64,000 nucleotides of DNA from a virus. This document shows positions 1,228 through 49,247 of this stretch, in pieces. A program made the translations under genes and the position numbers. Location of the stretch: the IMG/VR virus record IMGVR_UViG_3300034158_000010, positions 21,303 to 85,302 of that record; one strand, written 5' to 3'. The notes under the pieces are model-generated. The model ran no database searches, was not told where the DNA came from, and was given only the letters and a program-made list of their open reading frames with translations. How positions within the stretch are numbered: the first letter of the stretch is position 1; every line of letters starts with the position of its first letter.

Positions 1228-1303
1228 TGGCACGCATCCCAAGAATCGAACTTGGAACCTACGGTTTTGGAGACCGTCGCTCTGCCAATTGAGCTAGACA
1301 CGT
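1228..1303 (-). tRNA. tRNA-Trp (anticodon CCA)
   Basis: 76 bases with encoded 3' CCA. Acceptor ACGTGTC pairs with GATGCGT (two wobbles), D arm GCTC/GAGC, anticodon loop CTCCAAA, T arm CCAAG-TTCGATT-CTTGG. Trp has a single codon (UGG), so carriage may serve codon supply or replace a host tRNA cleaved by defence; that is inference. Confidence 0.93.
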
Positions 1304-1306
1304 AAA

Positions 1307-1382
1307 TGGCTCCATGACCTGGACTCGAACCAGGGACAAACGGATTAACAGTCCGTTGCTCTACCAACTGAGCTATCATGGA
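1307..1382 (-). tRNA. tRNA-Asn (anticodon GTT)
   Basis: 76 bases with encoded CCA. Acceptor TCCATGA/TCATGGA, anticodon arm ACGGA-CTGTTAA-TCCGT, T arm CCTGG-TTCGAGT-CCAGG. Only three bases separate it from the Trp gene, so the two are probably processed from one transcript. Confidence 0.95.
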
Positions 1383-1388
1383 ATGTGG

Positions 1389-1556
1389 CTATGCAACTTT
1401 ACCTTCACGCTCATCAAGAGTGTAGTCGGCATCGTTGACGGCTTCTTTCAAAGCCTGATGGTCAAGTTTAAGGTTCTTCCAGCTAAGTCGATCACAGCAT
1501 CGACAATCAGCGGGACCAAAGTTATCAAGTGGACGTTGTTTGATTTTCACTTTCAT
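1389..1556 (-). CDS. Small protein encoded inside the tRNA cluster
   Basis: 55 residues starting MKVKIKQRPL; the ATG is preceded by GAGGT at a usable distance, so I prefer it to a longer open frame that would run back through the tRNA-like gene. It holds a 'CRCC' cysteine cluster near residue 20 and an acidic C-terminal third. No family recognised. It is transcribed in the same direction as the tRNAs around it. Confidence 0.5.
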   Translation of the reverse strand: MKVKIKQRPLDNFGPADCRCCDRLSWKNLKLDHQALKEAVNDADYTLDEREGKVA

Positions 1557-1585
1557 AGCTTTTACCTCGAGAATAAATCGAGTTA

Positions 1586-1664
1586 TAGTAACAGCGAGTA
1601 TCGAAGTCGCACACAGCCACGGATTGGTTACCGGAGCCTGTCCTACCAATTGGACGATGTCACT
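1586..1664 (-). pseudogene. Degenerate tRNA-like gene
   Basis: The acceptor arms AGTGACA and TGTTACT pair over seven bases, the D arm GTCC-AATTGGTA-GGAC is intact and a TTCGATA T loop is present with a four-of-five base-pair stem. The 28 bases where the anticodon arm and variable loop belong do not fold into a standard 5-base stem with a 7-base loop, no anticodon can be assigned, and there is no encoded CCA (the 3' end reads TAA), unlike the three neighbours. Either a decayed tRNA or one with an unusual anticodon arm. Confidence 0.55.
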
Positions 1665-1676
1665 ATAACTTGAAAA

Positions 1677-1761
1677 TGGTGGAGAGACAAGGATTCGAAC
1701 CTTGGAAGAATTAACGCCGGATTTACAGTCCGGTCCCTTTGAGCCGCTCGGGAATCTCTCC
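1677..1761 (-). tRNA. tRNA-Tyr (anticodon GTA)
   Basis: 85 bases with a long variable arm, as expected for bacterial tRNA-Tyr. Acceptor GGAGAGA/TCTCTCC, discriminator A, encoded CCA, anticodon arm CCGGA-CTGTAAA-TCCGG, T loop TTCGAAT. Confidence 0.95.
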
Positions 1762-3164: not shown

Positions 3165-5570
3165 TTACGCCTGATGTTTGTTAACCAACGTGAGGTAGTT
3201 AGCCAGGTCTTCCAGAATCAACTCCAGACGAACCGTTACTTGGTGTAGGCAATCGAACGGATCATTGGATACGTGGGCGTGCATACGTAGCTTGTTCATC
3301 ACCTCAACGGCTTTATCACTTTGGGAATAACCACGGTAAGGGGCATCGGTAAAGTCTGGACCATGACCATACATCTCGTAGTGACCATCTTCGGCAATAC
3401 GGATCAGGTTAGCGGTATTGGTAATCAACTTCTTAAGAGCACCTACCTTACCAGTTGGAACTTCGTCGATCTCAACGGTAGCGGAACCTGCACGATGGGC
3501 CTCACGACTAAAGCCTTCCTCACCATCTTCCCAGTTATCCTTACCCCAGATAACGAAGTCATGAGAGTTAGAGAATACGTCGAAGTATGGCTTGGGTTCG
3601 TCCGCCTGCATTTTCTTCAATAGCTCAACGAACTCGTCTTCACGGTCAGCGTTACCATTAAATGCATCAAGCTTAGAAGCCCACTTGTTTTCCCAAGCTT
3701 CCAACTTCTGGTCGTACTTACTCAGGTCCTTGATGATCTTATCGTACGCCAGTACGTCACGCTGAAGATCAGCGATCCAATTCGGGTTATACTTACCGTT
3801 GGACAAGAAGATGGCTGTCTTAGAACCCGTCATGGTAACGGCAGGGAGAGCTGTGTCTGGACCATTAGTAAACTTAGCCGCTACGTCGATAGACGCAATG
3901 GGTAGTTCAGCTACGATCTCAGCTTTCTTAGGACCCGAGAAAAGTTTCTTCAGTGTGTCGAAGATACCTTCATTGGAAGCCACCAGATACGTCTCACAAG
4001 CTGCCTTAAGCTCCTGAGTAGTTGGGATAGTCGGTTCGTTGAAAGCTTCAAAGCTATTAGTGGTTACGTTGGTAATGGACTTACCAATGTAGTTAACCAA
4101 CGAGTCAGCGATGTTCTCAGCATTGATCCATGCAGCGTGTGTAGTGATACGTTGCTTGATCTCGGCATTCACCATGTAGGTGATCGTTGAGTATGCTTGT
4201 TCTAATCGTGAAATAGCCGCGTAAATAGGGGCATGATCTGGATTAGGAACGTGTGGTGCATGCGGAGTGGATGGACGAGGGGCGTACAAAGACTTAACGT
4301 AAGCAGCGTTAGGTAACGACATGCTAACCCGGAGACTACCCTCGTAAGTTGTTTGGACACCGTGTACCGTGCCAATCAAATCACTGAACATACGAACTTC
4401 AACTTTAGTCAAAGCATCGCCCGTTTGTGATACGAGTTCCGTTTCCATCAACTCAGGTTCTTTCAAGTTAATGTTCAAGCGGATCATGTATGGATTGATG
4501 CGGGCAATGGCTAGATCCAATGGCGCCGTTGAAGTCTGTCTTCCGTTCGAATACATGCTCAGGGCGTTAACCGCAATCTTTAACGCATCTTTAATCTTCA
4601 ACATCTCACGAGAGTTATGTTGCGACACCGCATTAACCGCAGCCTTATAACGCTGTACGTAGCTCTGTGCTGTCTGTGGGGTGAAGTCTGGCAAAGCCCG
4701 ATAGTTGACCTGACCTAGTGTATACTTCTGGCGAGACAGCCACGTAGGGTCACCGATAGTGCGACGGAGTTTATTACGTAAGTCTGGATCTTTACCAACC
4801 AAGTGGATCTTAGTCGGGCGATTTGCAAAGAAGTCTTTAATACTCTGCCAGATACCTTCTACCGAAACTACGTCCCCAACGGGGGTATAAACGATAGCTG
4901 GATCGTTAACAATGTTTTCCAAACCGATAGCCATGAATTGACGGGCCACTGGGTCTAGACCGTCTGCGCCTGCATCGGTGATTTGTTTTTCGTACTGCTT
5001 TACGGTCTTAGACATTTTAGTCTCTCGTTGGGGTTGCTGTTCAAGGCTAACCGTATTCCGGTAAGCGTATAGTAGTTGTAGGCGTTTGTTTGCCTGTTCG
5101 TAATAGCGTTCCATACCAGGCTTAATCAGGATCACACCTTTGACGTTCTTACCAGCGTAGTCTTCACGAAGCATTCGCATGATGTAAGAATTCAAGCCCT
5201 TACCTTCTTGGGCATACTTCTTAAGGTATCCCATCGACTCAGGCGTTGTTGATTTTAAGGTATAGATGTAACGTGAACCCGTGGTGAAGTTAACAACCAT
5301 CCAGTCTGGACCGTAATCATAACTAGCCACCCCAGAGTTACCGCCAATGTTAGCATAAGCATAACCCGGACGATTGTCGTCGAGCAGTTGAGCTACCGCT
5401 GCTGGAGTAACCCCTAGTTCCTCAGCTACTTCCTCATCGGTATCTTTCCAATAAGTACTAACGGTGTTAGCTGCCTCGTCCCAGTACTTCTGTATTACAT
5501 CTAGTGCATCCTCTATGGATACTTTCAGTGGGTATTCTACCCTCTGGATTAATCGGTCAAGGCTGGTCAT
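3165..5570 (-). CDS. Probable inner-head virion protein with two prohead-protease-type sites and an N-terminal KTSC-like domain
   Basis: 801 residues. Residues ~72-146 resemble a KTSC domain (a strand 'WMVVNFTTGSRYIY' followed by 'YLKKYAQEGKGLNSYIM'). A second part begins at Met186 ('MSKTVKQYEKQ'), which could be a separate start although its ribosome site (GAGAGA) is weak. After it come two similar junctions, 'SVE-GIWQSIKDFF' at Glu238 and 'SNE-GIFDTLKKLF' at Glu534. In phiKZ-like phages the prohead protease is known to cut after S/A-x-E, so I read these as cleavage sites that release mature inner-head segments. A histidine/proline-rich linker lies at ~432-448. The protein thus looks like a fusion of two propeptide-cargo modules behind a KTSC domain. 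Function inferred, not proven. Confidence 0.6.
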   Translation of the reverse strand: MTSLDRLIQRVEYPLKVSIEDALDVIQKYWDEAANTVSTYWKDTDEEVAEELGVTPAAVAQLLDDNRPGYAYANIGGNSGVASYDYGPDWMVVNFTTGSRYIYTLKSTTPESMGYLKKYAQEGKGLNSYIMRMLREDYAGKNVKGVILIKPGMERYYEQANKRLQLLYAYRNTVSLEQQPQRETKMSKTVKQYEKQITDAGADGLDPVARQFMAIGLENIVNDPAIVYTPVGDVVSVEGIWQSIKDFFANRPTKIHLVGKDPDLRNKLRRTIGDPTWLSRQKYTLGQVNYRALPDFTPQTAQSYVQRYKAAVNAVSQHNSREMLKIKDALKIAVNALSMYSNGRQTSTAPLDLAIARINPYMIRLNINLKEPELMETELVSQTGDALTKVEVRMFSDLIGTVHGVQTTYEGSLRVSMSLPNAAYVKSLYAPRPSTPHAPHVPNPDHAPIYAAISRLEQAYSTITYMVNAEIKQRITTHAAWINAENIADSLVNYIGKSITNVTTNSFEAFNEPTIPTTQELKAACETYLVASNEGIFDTLKKLFSGPKKAEIVAELPIASIDVAAKFTNGPDTALPAVTMTGSKTAIFLSNGKYNPNWIADLQRDVLAYDKIIKDLSKYDQKLEAWENKWASKLDAFNGNADREDEFVELLKKMQADEPKPYFDVFSNSHDFVIWGKDNWEDGEEGFSREAHRAGSATVEIDEVPTGKVGALKKLITNTANLIRIAEDGHYEMYGHGPDFTDAPYRGYSQSDKAVEVMNKLRMHAHVSNDPFDCLHQVTVRLELILEDLANYLTLVNKHQA

Positions 5571-5629
5571 CTCAGCTCCATATATTTACTAGTATATGAT
5601 TAAGGGGAGGGTATACTTAACGGCATAAA

Positions 5630-5651
5630 AGCCCTAGCTACGGCTAGGGCT
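5630..5651 (-). terminator. Hairpin terminator
   Basis: AGCCCTAGC-TACG-GCTAGGGCT with A-rich sequence on the left and TTTAT on the right, so it can act on both strands. It lies just past the stop of the minus-strand gene 5662-5889. Confidence 0.7.
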
Positions 5652-5661
5652 TTATATCGCT

Positions 5662-5889
5662 TTACGCAGCTTCTTCGATGCGGTTCATCTTAACGATTAC
5701 CTTCTCACCGTTATGTAGCTTAGCGACAATCGTGGTATGGTCCTGCATCAGAGCTGGTCGAACACCGATGACCGACTTAACATCTGGATGACTATTCTTA
5801 ACTTCTTTAAGTAGTCCTGCCCAAGTCAGGTTGGCATTACCCATTGCGGTCAAAATGTTACCGGCGATAGTTTTATTCAAGTTTTTCAT
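5662..5889 (-). CDS. Hypothetical protein, 75 aa
   Basis: Starts MKNLNKTIAG after an AGGA ribosome site. Basic N-terminus, one 'TTIVAKLHNGEKVIVKMN' beta-like C-terminal stretch. No family recognised. Stands alone between two hairpin terminators. Confidence 0.65.
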   Translation of the reverse strand: MKNLNKTIAGNILTAMGNANLTWAGLLKEVKNSHPDVKSVIGVRPALMQDHTTIVAKLHNGEKVIVKMNRIEEAA

Positions 5890-5923
5890 TTTTTGTATCC
5901 TAATTAGTCAAAGGGGAAATAAA

Positions 5924-5943
5924 GTCCTACCCGAAGGTAGGAC
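5924..5943 (-). terminator. Terminator of nrdB
   Basis: GTCCTACC-CGAA-GGTAGGAC; on the minus strand the stem is followed by TTTATTTCC. It is the first terminator downstream of nrdB. Confidence 0.7.
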
Positions 5944-5980
5944 TCCATACACAAACCAACACTAAAGGAGAAACCACATC

Positions 5981-6013
5981 ATGCAACCCACCAAGTCGCA
6001 CATCATGGAGTAA
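5981..6013 (+). other. Ten-codon mini-ORF with a strong ribosome site
   Basis: ATG CAA CCC ACC AAG and onward to TAA encodes MQPTKSHIME. AAAGGAG lies 10 bases upstream. It is on the plus strand in a gap between minus-strand genes, so it may be chance or a leader peptide. No promoter is seen. Confidence 0.25.
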
Positions 6014-6058
6014 CTTCGGCAATCAGACTCAGTTACATACTATTACTTAAATGTATGC

Positions 6059-7219
6059 TTAAGCCAGATCGAAGTCGAAGGTCTCATCTTCACGGGAAGT
6101 GTCTACAGCGTTTACCATGTACTGGTTGTTGTCAACTTCTTGAGGGCTGGTTTGGTTAGCCGCAAGGTCGAGGTACTCAGTCATGTAAGGGAGTGGGTTC
6201 TTCTCAGGGAATTCCAGAGGGAAGCCGGTGACCAGTTCGAACTGTGCACGCATCTCATCAGTGATGTGATCCTTAGCACCAGTGAAGGTACCAGCAGCGT
6301 TACCGTTGAACAAGACCCATTGGATCATCTTCTTAACAGTTACACCTGGTAGTTCACGACCTTCGGAGAACAGGTAGGTCAACCAATTGACTTCCGTCAT
6401 GATGATTTCCCAGAACAGCTCTACACCTTCAGCCATGGTGTCTTTATAAGCTTGCTGACCACGTGGGGTTTTCAGCATTGCCTTGATGACTTCCTGACCG
6501 AACTGAGCGTGTACTTCGAACTCATCGATAGCGATCTTCTGAACGCCCATCGCGATTGGTTGGAACCGACCCATCTTACCGAAGGCGAAGGTTACAGCAA
6601 ACGATGCCATGAACTGAATACGCTCAAGGTAGTAGAGCGCCAGCAAGAACTTGAAGATCTTGTTGTACAGGTCTTGGTCGTTAGGGATCGTACCGCAAGC
6701 ATAAGCATGTGATGCGTCGTGTGCTTCACCCATTACCTTGGCTACGGCCAGCATACGTTCTTGCGCTTCTTGCACCTTCAGGATTTCATCGAGGATGACC
6801 TGCGGGTTCTTGAAGGAGTTACGCACGATCTCGGAGTAGGTAAGAGCGTGAAGGTTCTCGTTGGAGTTGATCAGTACGTAACCTGCCCAGACGCGGGAGT
6901 CTGTGATTACTGGACCCAAGATGTTAACGATAGCACGAGATGCGGTAGCGTCAGCTTCCCACTGCCATGCCAAGGTCTTAACCATCATGTCGTAGTCACT
7001 ACGGGTAGCGGTCTCGAATTCATGCAGGCAGTCACCATACGGGAATTCGTTCTCGTCCCAGTCCATCATCTTCAAGCGTTTGTACAGGTTGAACAAAACC
7101 GGGTGGTGGTTGTTAATCGAATCGAACAGACCGGGTTCTTGACCGAGGATGATCTCGTTAGAATCGTAGTCAGTTTTTTGGTTGTTAAAGATCTTGATCG
7201 GGAGGTCAACAGTGGACAT
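6059..7219 (-). CDS. nrdB: Class Ia ribonucleotide reductase, small (beta) subunit
   Basis: 386 residues. Provides the diiron-tyrosyl radical for reduction of ribonucleoside diphosphates with NrdA (10216-12507). Motifs visible in order: WE88AD as first metal-ligand region, E121-x2-H124 with the radical tyrosine Y128 in 'ENLHALTYSEIVRN', LE199R in 'YLERIQFMASFA', then 'DEFEVH' with H237. The last motif is odd: the usual beta-subunit spacing is E-x2-H, whereas here glutamates sit 2 and 4 residues before the histidine. The acidic C-terminus 'EDETFDFDLA' fits the tail that docks on the large subunit. Its ATG overlaps the stop of the upstream minus-strand gene (TAATG), implying translational coupling. 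nrdA is about 3 kb away, separated by plus-strand genes. Confidence 0.95.
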   Translation of the reverse strand: MSTVDLPIKIFNNQKTDYDSNEIILGQEPGLFDSINNHHPVLFNLYKRLKMMDWDENEFPYGDCLHEFETATRSDYDMMVKTLAWQWEADATASRAIVNILGPVITDSRVWAGYVLINSNENLHALTYSEIVRNSFKNPQVILDEILKVQEAQERMLAVAKVMGEAHDASHAYACGTIPNDQDLYNKIFKFLLALYYLERIQFMASFAVTFAFGKMGRFQPIAMGVQKIAIDEFEVHAQFGQEVIKAMLKTPRGQQAYKDTMAEGVELFWEIIMTEVNWLTYLFSEGRELPGVTVKKMIQWVLFNGNAAGTFTGAKDHITDEMRAQFELVTGFPLEFPEKNPLPYMTEYLDLAANQTSPQEVDNNQYMVNAVDTSREDETFDFDLA

Positions 7220-7757: not shown

Positions 7758-7765
7758 TATATTAC
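7758..7765 (+). promoter_or_regulatory. Early-type promoter TATATTAC
   Basis: Context TTTAAAGCCTATATTACA, 29 bases before the ATG at 7794. The octamer is identical to the published phiKZ early promoter consensus and recurs here at 8760, 12629, 17059, 33717 and 63916. Confidence 0.75.
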
Positions 7766-39284: not shown

Positions 39285-39464
39285 ATGTTTTGGTTCTGGC
39301 TGGGGATTGTACTGATTGCTCTAGGCGCCGGTGTACAGACTATGACGTTCTGTATCTGTTACATAGGTAGCTATCGACCTGCACGTGAAGTGACGATCAC
39401 TGGATACTTCGTAGGGGGTATATTACTAGCGTGTGGCATCTTTGCAGTTTATCCACATGGGTAA
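39285..39464 (+). CDS. Two-pass membrane protein, 59 aa
   Basis: MFWFWLGIVLIALGAG begins the first hydrophobic segment (~2-25); the second is ~40-56. GAGGAT precedes the ATG. Confidence 0.6.
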   Translation: MFWFWLGIVLIALGAGVQTMTFCICYIGSYRPAREVTITGYFVGGILLACGIFAVYPHG

Positions 39465-43492: not shown

Positions 43493-43774
43493 ATGACGCA
43501 GCTATTCACTATCGATGAGAACAACTACACCGTGGTATTGAATAGCCGTGCCGCTATCGCTCAGGTGATGGAAGACACAGGCGTCAGTTCATTAGTTGGT
43601 TTCAACCGTGCAGCTGTACTGATCGTAAGACAGTTCGGTCACGTGCAAGGTGTTACTCTGGATGACAATGATTTAGAACACTGGACCCTCGGTGCAGTGA
43701 CGATGGCAGATGCAACTTATCTACAAGGCTTTCTTGCTGGCGACGCCAGTGAGATTGTATCCCTTAGTAATTGA
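43493..43774 (+). CDS. Hypothetical protein, 93 aa; pair with 43147-43491
   Basis: Start MTQLFTIDEN follows AGGAT. Clear duplicate of the preceding gene over most of its length. Lies directly before the tubulin gene. Confidence 0.7.
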   Translation: MTQLFTIDENNYTVVLNSRAAIAQVMEDTGVSSLVGFNRAAVLIVRQFGHVQGVTLDDNDLEHWTLGAVTMADATYLQGFLAGDASEIVSLSN

Positions 43775-43791
43775 AACGGAGCTACACCCTG

Positions 43792-44766
43792 ATGAAACCT
43801 TATGATTTCGAAGAAGCAGCAACTCCTGTAAAAACCTGTTTGATCTTTGCTGGTGGTTGCGGTCTCAACGTAGCTACCCACGTTATGGATCTTCCTAACG
43901 TTCATTGCATTGACACCTGCGATAAGAACATCGTTGATGCTCACCGTACTGGTAAAGTCTTTCTGACCCAAGGTACTCGTGGCGCTGGTAAGAACCGTGC
44001 ATTCATCCTACCTAAGGTTCGTCCACAAATCCCAACCTACATGGCGACTCTCCCTGAAGCAGACTTCTACATCGTCTGTTATTCGCTGGGTGGCGGATCG
44101 GGTTCGGTACTGGGTCCTTTGATCACTGGTGCTCTGGCGGATCGTCAAGCGGCTTTCGTTAGCTTCGTAATCGGTGCTATGGAATCTCCAGAAGTACTGC
44201 AAAACGATATCGATACCATGAAGTCGTTGGAGTCGATTGCGGTTCGTAAAGAAACGCCTATCGTAATCAACTACACCCCGAACGTTAACGGTCAGACCTA
44301 TGAGTATACCAACTCTCAGGTAGCTGCTAACATCCGTCGCATGGTTTGCCTGACTAACCAGAACCACCAGCGTCTGGATGTGTTCGATGTTCAGAACTGG
44401 GTACGCTTCACTGACAAGCATAAGAACCTGATCCCTCAGGTGTGTGAGCTGCACATCAGTGACAGTCGTAAAGATGCTGAGCTGGTTCCTGAACCAATCG
44501 CTGTTGCCAGCCTTTACCTCGATCCATCCAAAGAGTTCGCTTTTGGTTCTGCGATCGTACGCACCACCGGTATCATGCGTCCCGATGATCTGGACGTTAC
44601 TGAAGAACAACTGCACTTCGTCATCAACTCGGTTGGTGTTGTAGAAGTCATGAAGTCTATCAGCGATACCAAAACTGAGGTCACTCGTCAACTGGCAAAG
44701 TTCGTACAGCGTAACCCGCTGCTGGACCCAGATGACAATGCTGATGAAGATGGCATGGTAGTCTAA
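43792..44766 (+). CDS. phuZ: Phage tubulin/FtsZ-like GTPase (PhuZ type)
   Basis: 324 residues; PhuZ of 201phi2-1 is about 315. The tubulin signature 'SLGGGSGSVLGPL' is at ~98-110 (G100-G-G-S-G-S105), a T1-type 'FAGGCGLNV' at ~19-27, and an acidic tail 'DPDDNADEDGMVV' fits the PhuZ C-terminus that drives filament contacts. I cannot place the catalytic T7-loop aspartate with certainty. In phiKZ-like phages PhuZ forms a spindle that centres the phage nucleus and carries capsids to it. I start at ATG 43792, 10 bases after GGAG. A terminator follows directly. Confidence 0.88.
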   Translation: MKPYDFEEAATPVKTCLIFAGGCGLNVATHVMDLPNVHCIDTCDKNIVDAHRTGKVFLTQGTRGAGKNRAFILPKVRPQIPTYMATLPEADFYIVCYSLGGGSGSVLGPLITGALADRQAAFVSFVIGAMESPEVLQNDIDTMKSLESIAVRKETPIVINYTPNVNGQTYEYTNSQVAANIRRMVCLTNQNHQRLDVFDVQNWVRFTDKHKNLIPQVCELHISDSRKDAELVPEPIAVASLYLDPSKEFAFGSAIVRTTGIMRPDDLDVTEEQLHFVINSVGVVEVMKSISDTKTEVTRQLAKFVQRNPLLDPDDNADEDGMVV

Positions 44767-45311: not shown

Positions 45312-45615
45312 AGAAGGTGAGGGGCTATGGTACATCACACCGGATATCTTCACATCTCAAGTATTGGAACTCGGTAAGCGTTACACCGTCCTCTTGCTGG
45401 CAGATGGCGACGTTGTCATCAAGGGTTACGTTGTAGCTGGCGTAGGTAATTTCGATGCGGACTGGAACCTGACTCTGGGGGCGGACGATATGACGTACCT
45501 ATCGCTAAAGTTGCCTTACTTCAGTTCGCATTACATTAATGGGTTTGATATCATCATCCGGGATGACGAGAAAACCTTGATCATGTTACCCAACGTGAGT
45601 TATAGCCGTGGCTAA
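45298..45615 (+). CDS. Hypothetical beta-rich protein, 105 aa
   Basis: AAAAGGA before ATG, overlapping the previous gene by 14 bases. '[20 protein letters not shown]' suggests a barrel of the same general kind as its two neighbours. Confidence 0.65.
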
Positions 45616-46069
45616 AGTAACGGTACTTAATTGCTGGAACGCTGAGAAGTATCCTCTACCCGTCCCTGTGATCAGCTTTAACGAGTGGAACGGTCCTATA
45701 CCGGGTGAGCGTCACACTTACCCGTTAGGTACCCATCACAAGGACGTACAGCGGATCTACGTGGATGACGTTGAAGAACAGATCGACTCCACGTATCGCT
45801 TGTTTGATTACATCGACGCGCTGAAGATCTTCACGTTCTTGGATAAGTACCCAGGTGAAGACATCATGGTACATTGTGCGGCGGGTTCATCGCGTAGCCC
45901 TGCATGCGCTAAGTTCATGATCGAGTATCTGGGCTATGAGTTGGACACCGAGGTTAACAGCCCTGATTATGACCGGTGTCATAATACTCACGTCTACTAT
46001 ACTCTGAAACGGGCGATCTTCGATCACCAGCGAATTCAACAAACCTTAAGGATGGCAAATCGTGGCTAA
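45608..46069 (+). CDS. Dual-specificity/tyrosine phosphatase-like protein
   Basis: 153 residues, GTG start overlapping the previous gene. The signature 'IMVHCAAGSSRSPACAKF' holds the catalytic C90 and R96 (H-C-x2-G-x2-R-S). An upstream 'YVDDVEE' (~51-57) can supply the general acid. Cysteine-based phosphatases of this fold act on phosphotyrosine/serine proteins, but also on RNA 5' ends or lipids. No signal peptide, so it acts in the cytoplasm. In this early-type cluster it may change host signalling or remove a phosphate-based defence signal; that is inference. Confidence 0.82.
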   Translation: MAKVTVLNCWNAEKYPLPVPVISFNEWNGPIPGERHTYPLGTHHKDVQRIYVDDVEEQIDSTYRLFDYIDALKIFTFLDKYPGEDIMVHCAAGSSRSPACAKFMIEYLGYELDTEVNSPDYDRCHNTHVYYTLKRAIFDHQRIQQTLRMANRG

Positions 46070-46343: not shown

Positions 46344-46523
46344 ATGATTGGTGCAATGGGTAACCTCTCTGCATGGGGCGTTGGGATGTTTCTTCTGTTC
46401 GGACTGTTGTTCTTGGTGTCCGACGATAGTACTAAGTACCGTAAACCGGTAGGTATCATCTCGTTGTTTTGGCTGGTGACAGCGGTGGTTGCTTCAACCA
46501 TTCGTGAGACCTATATTCCTTAA
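46344..46523 (+). CDS. Two-pass membrane protein, 59 aa
   Basis: GGGGA before ATG. Hydrophobic segments at ~10-27 and ~39-55 joined by 'SDDSTKYRKP'. Confidence 0.6.
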   Translation: MIGAMGNLSAWGVGMFLLFGLLFLVSDDSTKYRKPVGIISLFWLVTAVVASTIRETYIP

Positions 46524-47348: not shown

Positions 47349-47605
47349 TTCGCCTACTTAAAGAGTTCCGGGATCTGGACCTCCCTATGGTCTGTGCACC
47401 TTTGGATCAGTTCACGTCCGTTCGTATTACCCTACGTGGTACTACATTCAGCTTCGTTAAGAAGTACCGTGGTAAGGAAGAGGATGTGGCTATCGTTTAT
47501 ACCAACACCGATGGGGAATATACCGGTATGGTTGTCGAAGGTAACGTTGCTACCGCTATGTCGTTACTGTTGTTCTCGCTGGAGATCGCAGTAGAGAACA
47601 ACTGA
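47327..47605 (+). CDS. Hypothetical protein, 92 aa
   Basis: AAGGAG before ATG; overlaps the previous gene by 22 bases and the next by one. Possible relative of 46977. Confidence 0.7.
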   Translation: MHRRGELIRLLKEFRDLDLPMVCAPLDQFTSVRITLRGTTFSFVKKYRGKEEDVAIVYTNTDGEYTGMVVEGNVATAMSLLLFSLEIAVENN

Positions 47606-47802
47606 TGGACGCCCGTCAGCAAATCGAGAGTGTCAAGTGCGATGCTCTCAGAATGTTAAAACTAATTGCTGCACGTGAGGGTACCGATGAAGCTTTCAAT
47701 TTATATTCTCCTGACCACCTTGGTGTGTATAGCACTGTCGGTGACGAAGTGTGTGATGGACACACGGGAATATGTGGAGGAGACCCGTTTCACGATTACT
47801 AA
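47605..47802 (+). CDS. Hypothetical protein, 65 aa
   Basis: ATG overlaps the previous stop (TGATG). Its last ~115 bases overlap the next gene in another frame. The C-terminus has two cysteines in 'VCDGHTGICGGD'. Confidence 0.5.
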   Translation: MDARQQIESVKCDALRMLKLIAAREGTDEAFNLYSPDHLGVYSTVGDEVCDGHTGICGGDPFHDY

Positions 47803-47926
47803 CTCGATGAGTAATCAGGAACAAAGTTACAGAGCGTGTTTGAAACGTACCTCCAGTTGGATGGGCGTCACAGACCGTAACAAAATGACCGCGTGTTCTA
47901 AAGAAGTGGGATTCTATGAAAATTGA
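47687..47926 (+). CDS. Membrane-anchored protein with paired cysteines, 79 aa
   Basis: Start MKLSIYILLTTL follows GAGGG. N-terminal hydrophobic segment (~3-20), then an outward-facing part with C51 and C70. The segment 'YRACLKRTSSWMG...TAC' has the same 19-residue cysteine spacing and flanking residues as 48113-48379, so the two are paralogues. Nested with the preceding gene and overlapping the lipoprotein gene by 11 bases. Confidence 0.6.
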   Translation: MKLSIYILLTTLVCIALSVTKCVMDTREYVEETRFTITNSMSNQEQSYRACLKRTSSWMGVTDRNKMTACSKEVGFYEN

Positions 47927-48092
47927 TTTGAGTTGGATATTCCTTGGTTTGCTGGCGCTATCTTTCGGGGGCTGTGCAGGACTGAGTACGATCGGCGATA
48001 AGTATGAAAGTGCTGAACGTTATAAAGCTGACCGTTATTTGGAAGGCGTAAAGTTCAAAGCAAGGTTGGAAGCTGGTGAAGTAGTCCGTTAA
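47916..48092 (+). CDS. Small lipoprotein, 58 aa
   Basis: Signal 'MKIDLSWIFLGLLALSFGGC' with C20 as the likely lipidated cysteine (lipobox L-x-x-C type, here F-G-G-C). The remaining ~38 residues are charged and helical. This is the size of an outer-membrane spanin subunit, but a spanin role is only a suggestion. Lies between two related membrane-anchored proteins. Confidence 0.6.
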   Translation: MKIDLSWIFLGLLALSFGGCAGLSTIGDKYESAERYKADRYLEGVKFKARLEAGEVVR

Positions 48093-48112
48093 TAACTGGG
48101 TGGAGTTTAACA

Positions 48113-48379
48113 ATGCAACTTGATAAAGAGGTGTTAAAAGATTCACGGGCATTTGCCAAATGGGCCGTCATCTTGACACTCGTGTTTGGCCTGGGTGGTT
48201 TGATCTTCACTCATGTACGCGAGGTTCGTGAAAGCGATCGTATCGAAGCTGAAGAACTACGTGCCTGGCAAAGTTCGCCAGAGTATGCCTTCAGGTTCTG
48301 CTTGACGACCGTAACTGGTATTGACGGTACGGCTACACCAGATCAGATCAAAGCCTGTAAAGAAGCGTCACTTCGTTAA
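48113..48379 (+). CDS. Membrane-anchored protein with paired cysteines, 88 aa
   Basis: GGAG before ATG. Membrane segment ~17-34, charged linker, then C63 and C82 in 'YAFRFCLTTVTGIDG' and 'IKACKEASLR'. Paralogue of 47687-47926. The two cysteines may form a disulfide in the periplasm. Confidence 0.65.
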   Translation: MQLDKEVLKDSRAFAKWAVILTLVFGLGGLIFTHVREVRESDRIEAEELRAWQSSPEYAFRFCLTTVTGIDGTATPDQIKACKEASLR

Positions 48380-48388
48380 CGTCATAAA

Positions 48389-48409
48389 GCCCCTCCGTAA
48401 TGGAGGGGC
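48389..48409. terminator. Bidirectional terminator
   Basis: GCCCCTCC-GTAAT-GGAGGGGC between convergent genes, preceded by CATAAA. Confidence 0.75.
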
Positions 48410-48425
48410 GATATGCCTTATTTTT

Positions 48426-49247
48426 TTATTGTGCCGCGATCAGAGTACGGATGTGGTGCCGATTACCCTCAGGGTCGTTGAAGCACCGCAAGATCTTTTG
48501 AACCTTACGTAGTTGCTCATCGTACTTGTCATTAGCGTCAGCCCACTCGTATACCTTATCACGGAATACACCAAGCTCTTGACCACCTGCCAACTGAGCT
48601 TCACCCATCTCGATGAACATCTCGTTGTAGCAGTAAGCCTGAACAGCGTACTCAACCAACTTAGCGAATGCAGGCCAGCTAGGTTGACGAATGTTGTTTA
48701 GTTCCTCATCGTTACCCAGACGACAGCTAAGATAAGCGGTGGCCGTAGGCATAGCGATAAAGCGTACCATGAATGTGTTGTGGTTAATCAAACCCAAGTA
48801 ACTGGTTTGTGCCACAGGGATACGACGAGCCGCATCTAACACCTGCCGGGTAGCTGAGGTCATTGCGCCTTCACGGTAAGTAGTCATGAGACCACCGCTC
48901 TGATAACCCAGTACACCGAAGTGCATACTGTACAGCTGGACGATTGGCCTGCCTTGGGTATACTCATCAGGAATGTAGTAAACAGTCGTATATGGGTCTA
49001 CGTACTGTGCTCGAACTGGGAAGTCTAGAGGGATGAAAGTCTTAGTACCACCGATCACTTCCAGGTCAGGTTTAATACGGGCCTCGATTATCGCTTCTCG
49101 AATACGATGCTCCATCGAAAAGTTAGATCCACAACCAGCATTATCCAGAGCAATGGTCGCCTTATTACCGGCAACGAAAACCTGCTGGAGTACCTGACGG
49201 GGGATACGGGGTCGAATGTAGTTTAGTGCATATTGGATAGCGCTCAT
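48426..49247 (-). CDS. Hypothetical protein, 273 aa, possibly virion-related
   Basis: Starts [14 protein letters not shown]. Soluble, mixed alpha/beta. The minus-strand position, length and lack of overlaps resemble those of virion genes in the window. No domain recognised. Confidence 0.7.

What the first reader, a model, noticed from the sequence alone, without database searches (positions are those of the whole stretch)
47605..48379. Envelope module: two paired-cysteine anchored proteins around a lipoprotein
47687 and 48113 each have one membrane segment and two cysteines exactly 19 residues apart in a similar context; between them lies a 58-residue lipoprotein, and 47605 is nested with the first. 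The set could be a spanin-like lysis unit, a superinfection-exclusion device or an envelope defence. I know of no described module with this exact layout.
Basis: partly seen in the sequence, partly recalled or inferred. Interest (0 to 1): 0.6.

Follow-up and report, generated by a model that had tools for sequence, protein, structure and literature searches.

The report
Paired membrane proteins beside phage tubulin
A giant nucleus-forming Pseudomonas phage carries, at the end of its tubulin gene cluster, a pair of small membrane-anchored sister proteins, each probably pinned by one disulfide bond in the periplasm; the pair is real, conserved only in some relatives and not yet described, is not the phage's lysis spanin, and most likely acts on the host envelope, perhaps against competing phages.

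Summary
The window is a 201phi2-1-like nucleus-forming jumbo phage. ORFs 47687-47926 (A) and 48113-48379 (B) each have one N-terminal membrane segment and a C-x18-C pair. They are diverged paralogs (hhalign E 1.2e-6) and correspond to 201phi2-1 gp69 and gp70. Their duplication predates that clade. They occur only in this phuZ-cluster slot, usually side by side. Each is predicted to be a long helix plus a helical hairpin carrying the cysteines, N-in/C-out. The 58-aa ORF between them equals gp71, is found only in these two phages and lies after B in 201phi2-1, so "around a lipoprotein" is not the conserved layout; its lipidation is plausible but unproven. ORF 47605 is similar only over its first ~27 codons, up to where A starts. 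The spanin reading is not supported: 201phi2-1 has a textbook overlapped Rz/Rz1-like pair near its endolysin, and its i-spanin is conserved in three relatives that carry A (two also B). Best explanation: an accessory inner-membrane/periplasmic heteromer that modifies the host envelope, most likely for superinfection exclusion. The architecture is well supported; the function is inferred. No Pfam, PHROG, NCBIfam or PADLOC family covers it.

The parts
47605..47802 (+). Small overlapping ORF (65 aa); first ~27 codons similar to ORFs in 201phi2-1, Viktualia, L005, L017; probable cytosolic peptide
47687..47926 (+). Protein A (79 aa): single TM, C-x18-C hairpin; ortholog of 201phi2-1 gp69
   Evidence: Shine-Dalgarno GAGG upstream
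47916..48092 (+). 58-aa putative lipoprotein (lipobox-like LSFGG-C); ortholog of 201phi2-1 gp71
48113..48379 (+). Protein B (88 aa): single TM, C-x18-C hairpin; ortholog of 201phi2-1 gp70
48383..48428 (+). Intrinsic terminator-like hairpin and T run just after B, ending the plus-strand gene run
   Evidence: z -4.2
43771..44766 (+). phuZ (phage tubulin), upstream gene of the same plus-strand run (context)
48426..49247 (-). DUF7484 / phiKZ gp42-like core gene, convergent, marks the other side of the slot (context)

Best explanation
A and B are an anciently duplicated pair of accessory inner-membrane proteins. Each has a short cytoplasmic N-terminus, one membrane helix that runs on as a rod into the periplasm, and a C-terminal helical hairpin probably closed by a disulfide between the C-x18-C cysteines. 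They come from neighbouring genes and probably act together as a heteromer. They sit in a slot between phuZ and the phiKZ gp42-like gene where related phages carry other sets of small genes, some predicted to be secreted. Most likely they modify the periplasm or inner membrane of the infected cell so that later phages cannot deliver their DNA (superinfection exclusion), with the 58-aa putative lipoprotein as an optional extra part. Shown from sequence: paralogy, conservation and genomic restriction. Predicted: topology and fold. Inferred: disulfide, heteromer, exclusion function.
For: Paralogy of A and B, with A and B on separate branches (92/97 support, 100% of bootstraps), so both copies have been kept since before the clade split. 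Whole-record searches find the family only in this slot, as neighbours in seven records (window, 201phi2-1, Viktualia, L004, L017, RVTF4, D6). Cysteines invariant. Positive N-terminal flank in nearly all members, and in L012 a domain found elsewhere as a separate protein without a TM is fused in frame before the TM, which fits N-in/C-out. Helix plus hairpin predicted for both. Not found in phiKZ, PhiPA3, Phabio, Psa21, PA1C, EL, OBP, Noxifer, Goslar or RAY; Phabio, L005 and L017 carry a different signal-peptide-like Cys-pair family in the slot. It evolves faster than its core neighbour (pN/pS 0.42-0.46 against 0.12). Accessory, variable and fast-evolving is what a phage competition gene would look like.
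Against: No characterised homolog, and no experiment on any member was found. The accessory pattern fits any host-adaptation role about equally well. Expression time is unknown: the nearest early-type promoter is about 14 kb upstream, whereas exclusion genes are often early. The AF2 models have modest global confidence (pTM 0.41 and 0.46).
Confidence: 0.38

Rival explanations
1. Host-takeover envelope modulators: A and B bind a host inner-membrane or periplasmic complex (cell division, peptidoglycan synthesis, Sec/Dsb machinery or an envelope stress sensor) to favour phage growth, without excluding other phages.
For: Same anatomy and accessory distribution as the best explanation; neighbouring genes in the cluster also encode small membrane proteins (window 46344-46523, 201phi2-1 gp64).
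Against: Nothing specific points to a host target.
Confidence: 0.3
2. Spanin-like lysis unit: A or B as i-spanin and the 58-aa ORF as o-spanin fuse inner and outer membrane at lysis.
For: IM anchor next to a lipobox ORF, overlapping genes, periplasmic cysteines; a simple scan of 201phi2-1 picks gp70/gp71 as a separated candidate pair; two-component spanins with as few as 62 periplasmic residues in all are reported (PMC6139136).
Against: 201phi2-1 has a dedicated overlapped Rz/Rz1-like pair near the endolysin; its i-spanin is conserved in relatives that carry A; the 58-aa ORF is absent from most genomes with A/B; no spanin profile hit.
Confidence: 0.05
3. Lysis-timing regulators: A and B are antiholin-like periplasmic sensors that act on a phage holin, like T4 RI (a small anchored protein with a periplasmic disulfide domain; general knowledge).
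For: Size, N-terminal anchor, periplasmic Cys pair; A of L005 and L017 has a weakly hydrophobic, Ala/Gly-rich anchor; a two-TM protein lies in the same cluster (46344-46523).
Against: Not near the endolysin or spanin; no holin identified; no homology to RI; not found in phiKZ or PhiPA3.
Confidence: 0.1
4. PhuZ-spindle accessory: A and B are membrane anchors that organise PhuZ filament ends at the pole.
For: Same plus-strand gene run as phuZ; a phage-encoded polar organiser was hypothesised in 201phi2-1 (PMC4244570); some members have cytoplasmic extensions (L012, L013).
Against: The conserved domain is periplasmic and the cytoplasmic tail of A is about two residues; phiKZ and PhiPA3, which also form PhuZ spindles, lack the family.
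Confidence: 0.04

Closest known systems
201phi2-1 gp69, gp70, gp71 (hypothetical proteins, Pseudomonas chlororaphis phage)
   Same: Orthologs of A, B and the 58-aa ORF in the same slot between phuZ and the phiKZ gp42-like gene
   Different: Order is A-B-LP rather than A-LP-B; gp71 has a longer acidic N-terminus; about 29-40% identity
T4 Imm and Sp, P22 SieA (membrane or periplasmic superinfection exclusion proteins)
   Same: Phage-encoded envelope proteins that interfere with DNA delivery by later phages (PMC11436027; PMC10883804); working analogy only
   Different: Not matched in any family search here; none known to me as a duplicated C-x18-C pair; exclusion not tested here
Two-component spanins (lambda Rz/Rz1; 201phi2-1 gp226 plus overlapping lipoprotein)
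   Same: Inner-membrane single-pass protein next to a possible lipoprotein, periplasmic cysteines, overlapping genes
   Different: 201phi2-1 has its own spanin pair elsewhere; the lipoprotein is not conserved with A/B; no profile match; two paralogous anchors instead of one
T4 RI antiholin
   Same: Small N-anchored periplasmic domain with a disulfide (general knowledge)
   Different: Not in a lysis cluster; no homology seen; paired paralogs

Membership tests
Two-component spanin | i-spanin: one N-terminal TM, N-in/C-out periplasmic domain | tested here: met
   Hydropathy and charge of A and B; AF2; prediction only
Two-component spanin | o-spanin: outer-membrane lipoprotein with lipobox, kept together with the i-spanin | tested here: not met
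   Lipobox-like FGGC/IGSC in two phages, but the ORF is absent from most genomes with A/B
Two-component spanin | match to spanin profiles | tested here: not met
   No PHROG hit for A, B or LP, while 201phi2-1 gp226 and its partner hit Rz-like spanin families
Two-component spanin | is the genome's spanin, usually near holin/endolysin | tested here: not met
   In 201phi2-1 the spanin pair is at 157983-158649, three genes before endolysin gp229
Two-component spanin | complements loss of Rz/Rz1 in lysis | not testable with these tools
   needs a lysis assay
Superinfection exclusion protein | expression blocks infection by a second phage at the envelope or DNA-entry step | not testable with these tools
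   needs efficiency-of-plating, adsorption and DNA-entry assays
Superinfection exclusion protein | envelope location | tested here: inconclusive
   predicted inner-membrane anchor with periplasmic Cys hairpin; no experiment
Known bacterial anti-phage defence system | match to PADLOC models | tested here: not met
   no match at E<=1
Bacterial lipoprotein (58-aa ORF) | signal peptide with lipobox Cys | tested here: inconclusive
   LSFGG-C fits a relaxed lipobox; the ortholog has SIGS-C but a longer acidic n-region

The most novel reading that the evidence does not exclude
A/B, alone or with the other small membrane proteins of the phuZ cluster, form a membrane receptor that anchors or organises the PhuZ spindle at the cell poles in 201phi2-1-like phages, i.e. 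part of the unidentified phage-encoded polar factor.
Probability: 0.04. Interest if true: 0.75.

Novelty: new variant of a known kind. Interest (0 to 1): 0.33.

Why it matters
It defines an undescribed protein family, the tandem C-x18-C single-pass paralogs, and points to an exchangeable slot for small envelope proteins next to the tubulin gene of nucleus-forming phages. If the pair excludes superinfecting phages it would be an envelope-level competition device in phages whose best-known isolation mechanisms act inside the cell. It also removes a tempting but wrong spanin annotation and locates the likely real spanin of 201phi2-1, whose o-spanin is not annotated in the RefSeq record.

Tried and rejected
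Spanin: rejected as the main role after finding the dedicated spanin pair in 201phi2-1. Known families: no informative Pfam, PHROG, NCBIfam, PADLOC or Rfam match; sub-threshold Pfam HTH_61 and NCBIfam PatX hits to A ignored as low-score noise. PDB profile search: only weak hits to coiled-coil, designed and Rop proteins. Foldseek on the B model returned with support only the 201phi2-1 homologs. Single-protein and alignment scans of IMG/VR found no members outside the relatives already in hand, and the bacterial genome scan found none. Programmed frameshift joining 47605 to A: considered and dropped because A has its own Shine-Dalgarno and start. Local early promoter: none; the TATATTAC at 39419 lies inside an ORF and lacks the extended motif. 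Papers: no text on the function of 201phi2-1 gp69, gp70 or gp71 was found.

Full report
What the window is. The window is 64 kb of an 85-kb IMG/VR phage record (G000). It carries phuZ (43771-44766; PHROG tubulin PhuZ, E 2.5e-95) and the convergent DUF7484 gene (48426-49247 minus). The latter is a 78%-identical relative of 201phi2-1 gp73 and matches 218 phage records. The closest named relatives are 201phi2-1 and Viktualia. At the nucleotide level no phage record matches the locus.

The observation. ORFs 47605-47802, 47687-47926 (A), 47916-48092 (LP) and 48113-48379 (B) are present as described. A and B each have one hydrophobic segment and cysteines exactly 19 positions apart (Cys51/70, Cys63/82). 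A profile comparison of the A and B families gives probability 90.8 and E 1.2e-6, so they are paralogs, not look-alikes. Both cysteines are invariant across 13 relatives. In a maximum-likelihood tree the A and B proteins form separate groups (92/97; 100% of bootstraps), so the duplication is older than the 201phi2-1-like clade and both copies were kept. Synonymous/non-synonymous counts show purifying selection on A, B and LP (pN/pS 0.46, 0.42 and 0.36), weaker than on the neighbouring core gene (0.12); synonymous sites are near saturation in these pairs, so the ratios are rough.

Comparative anatomy. In 201phi2-1 the order is A (gp69), B (gp70), LP (gp71). In Viktualia it is A, B and a third protein with C-x18-C. 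In L004 it is A, B. In L017 it is A, B and a different signal-peptide-like Cys-pair protein, and in L005 A and that protein. RVTF4 and D6 have two adjacent family members each. L013 looks like the N-terminus of the first joined to the C-terminus of the second (by eye). L011 has one member, and L010 a weak one seen only by motif. Whole-record searches find the family nowhere else in these genomes, and not at all in phiKZ, PhiPA3, Phabio, Psa21, PA1C, Noxifer, FLC9, RAY, FBKp24, Goslar, N1M2, OBP, EL or Derbicus; an empty profile search in distant genomes is weak evidence of absence. LP is found only in the window phage and 201phi2-1. In RAY, FBKp24 and Goslar phuZ abuts the DUF7484 gene, whereas several Pseudomonas phages have small genes between them, so this is a variable slot.

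ORF 47605. Similar ORFs occur in 201phi2-1 (unannotated), Viktualia, L005 and L017. A starts 82 nt inside this ORF in four genomes and 79 nt in 201phi2-1. The visible similarity is confined to about the first 27 codons; past A's start the frame runs on to stops at different points. It is best read as a small conserved cytosolic peptide gene overlapping A. A has its own Shine-Dalgarno.

Topology and fold. The N-terminal flank is positive in nearly all members. In L012 the A-like part is fused in frame after a domain that is a separate protein in L010. Together with invariant cysteines this points to N-in/C-out. AlphaFold2 gives the same layout for B (helices 5-53, 56-67, 76-86; pLDDT 78) and A (2-40, 43-55, 64-74; pLDDT 81): a long membrane-crossing helix, then a helical hairpin with one Cys in each arm. 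A third Cys at the periplasmic end of the TM, with 28 residues between it and the first pair Cys, occurs in six members; except in L004 B it does not sit in a lipobox.

Is LP a lipoprotein? LSFGG-C fits a relaxed lipobox and the Cys is kept in 201phi2-1 gp71, but gp71 has 14 extra residues, several of them acidic, before the hydrophobic core. Plausible, not shown.

Testing the spanin idea. A scan of 201phi2-1 for an anchored protein next to a lipoprotein returned gp70/gp71 as a separated pair, but also a textbook overlapped pair: gp226 (157983-158441) and an unannotated lipoprotein ORF (158260-158649; an in-frame ATG lies six bases in). These hit PHROG 'Rz-like spanin' families (E 8.8e-9 and 9e-7) and lie three genes before endolysin gp229. 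The i-spanin is conserved in Viktualia, G011 and G002, all of which carry A, and two of which carry B. Kongari et al. 2018 (PMC6139136) list 201phi2-1 and phiKZ among phages with two-component spanins; their coordinates are in a supplement I could not read. The spanin role is therefore taken, and the A/B/LP set fails the conservation and profile tests. The window record is a fragment without a gp226 match, so this conclusion is carried over from its relatives.

Expression. The 201phi2-1-type early promoter (consensus in PMC7058600) occurs in the window at 7758, 8760, 17059, 33717 and 63915, all on the plus strand. The nearest one upstream of the module is about 14 kb away, as in 201phi2-1 (22127 against 35721). 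A strong terminator-like hairpin follows B. The module is thus the distal end of a long plus-strand gene run; whether it is early or middle is unknown.

Function. What the sequence supports is a conserved, duplicated, anchored, probably disulfide-bonded pair of accessory envelope proteins in an exchangeable slot. The exclusion function is an inference from accessory distribution, faster evolution and location, with T4 Imm/Sp and P22 SieA as working analogies (PMC11436027). Other host-envelope targets are nearly as likely. A role in PhuZ spindle anchoring, for which Erb et al. 2014 hypothesised an unidentified phage protein (PMC4244570), is suggested only by gene position and is weakened by the absence of A/B from phiKZ and PhiPA3.

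Verdict. A real, undescribed small-protein family.

Noticed in passing
201phi2-1 NC_010821.1 158260-158649 (L059 4761-5150): Lipoprotein ORF overlapping gp226, not annotated in the record, hits PHROG 'Rz-like spanin'; with gp226 it is the likely spanin of 201phi2-1.
   Followed up: yes
window 46344-46523; 201phi2-1 gp64 (L001 4131-4313): Small, probably two-TM membrane protein in the same phuZ cluster; function unknown, could be holin-like or a membrane organiser.
   Followed up: partly
L020 (Phabio) 5519-5767, 5859-6122, 6122-6388; L017 and L005 (reverse-complement coordinates 4702-4950 and 4701-4949): A second family of small proteins with a signal-peptide-like start and two cysteines (about 82-88 aa), three copies in Phabio, in the same slot.
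   Followed up: partly
window 7758, 8760, 17059, 33717, 63915 (+): Early-type promoters matching or close to the 201phi2-1 consensus; seven exact TATATTAC on the plus strand, none on the minus, against 2.0 expected on both.
   Followed up: partly
window 45608-46069 (+): Dual-specificity-phosphatase-like protein (phiKZ gp40 / 201phi2-1 gp62 position) with HCAAGSSRS signature; sub-threshold Pfam DSPc hit.
   Followed up: no
L012, reverse-complement 3825-4424: 199-aa fusion of a domain that is separate in L010, an A-like anchor/Cys-pair domain, and a C-terminal NPIYPFG..KEYCF tail that resembles another small protein in L010.
   Followed up: partly
window 1228-1761 (-): Three tRNA genes (Trp, Asn, Tyr).
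   Followed up: no
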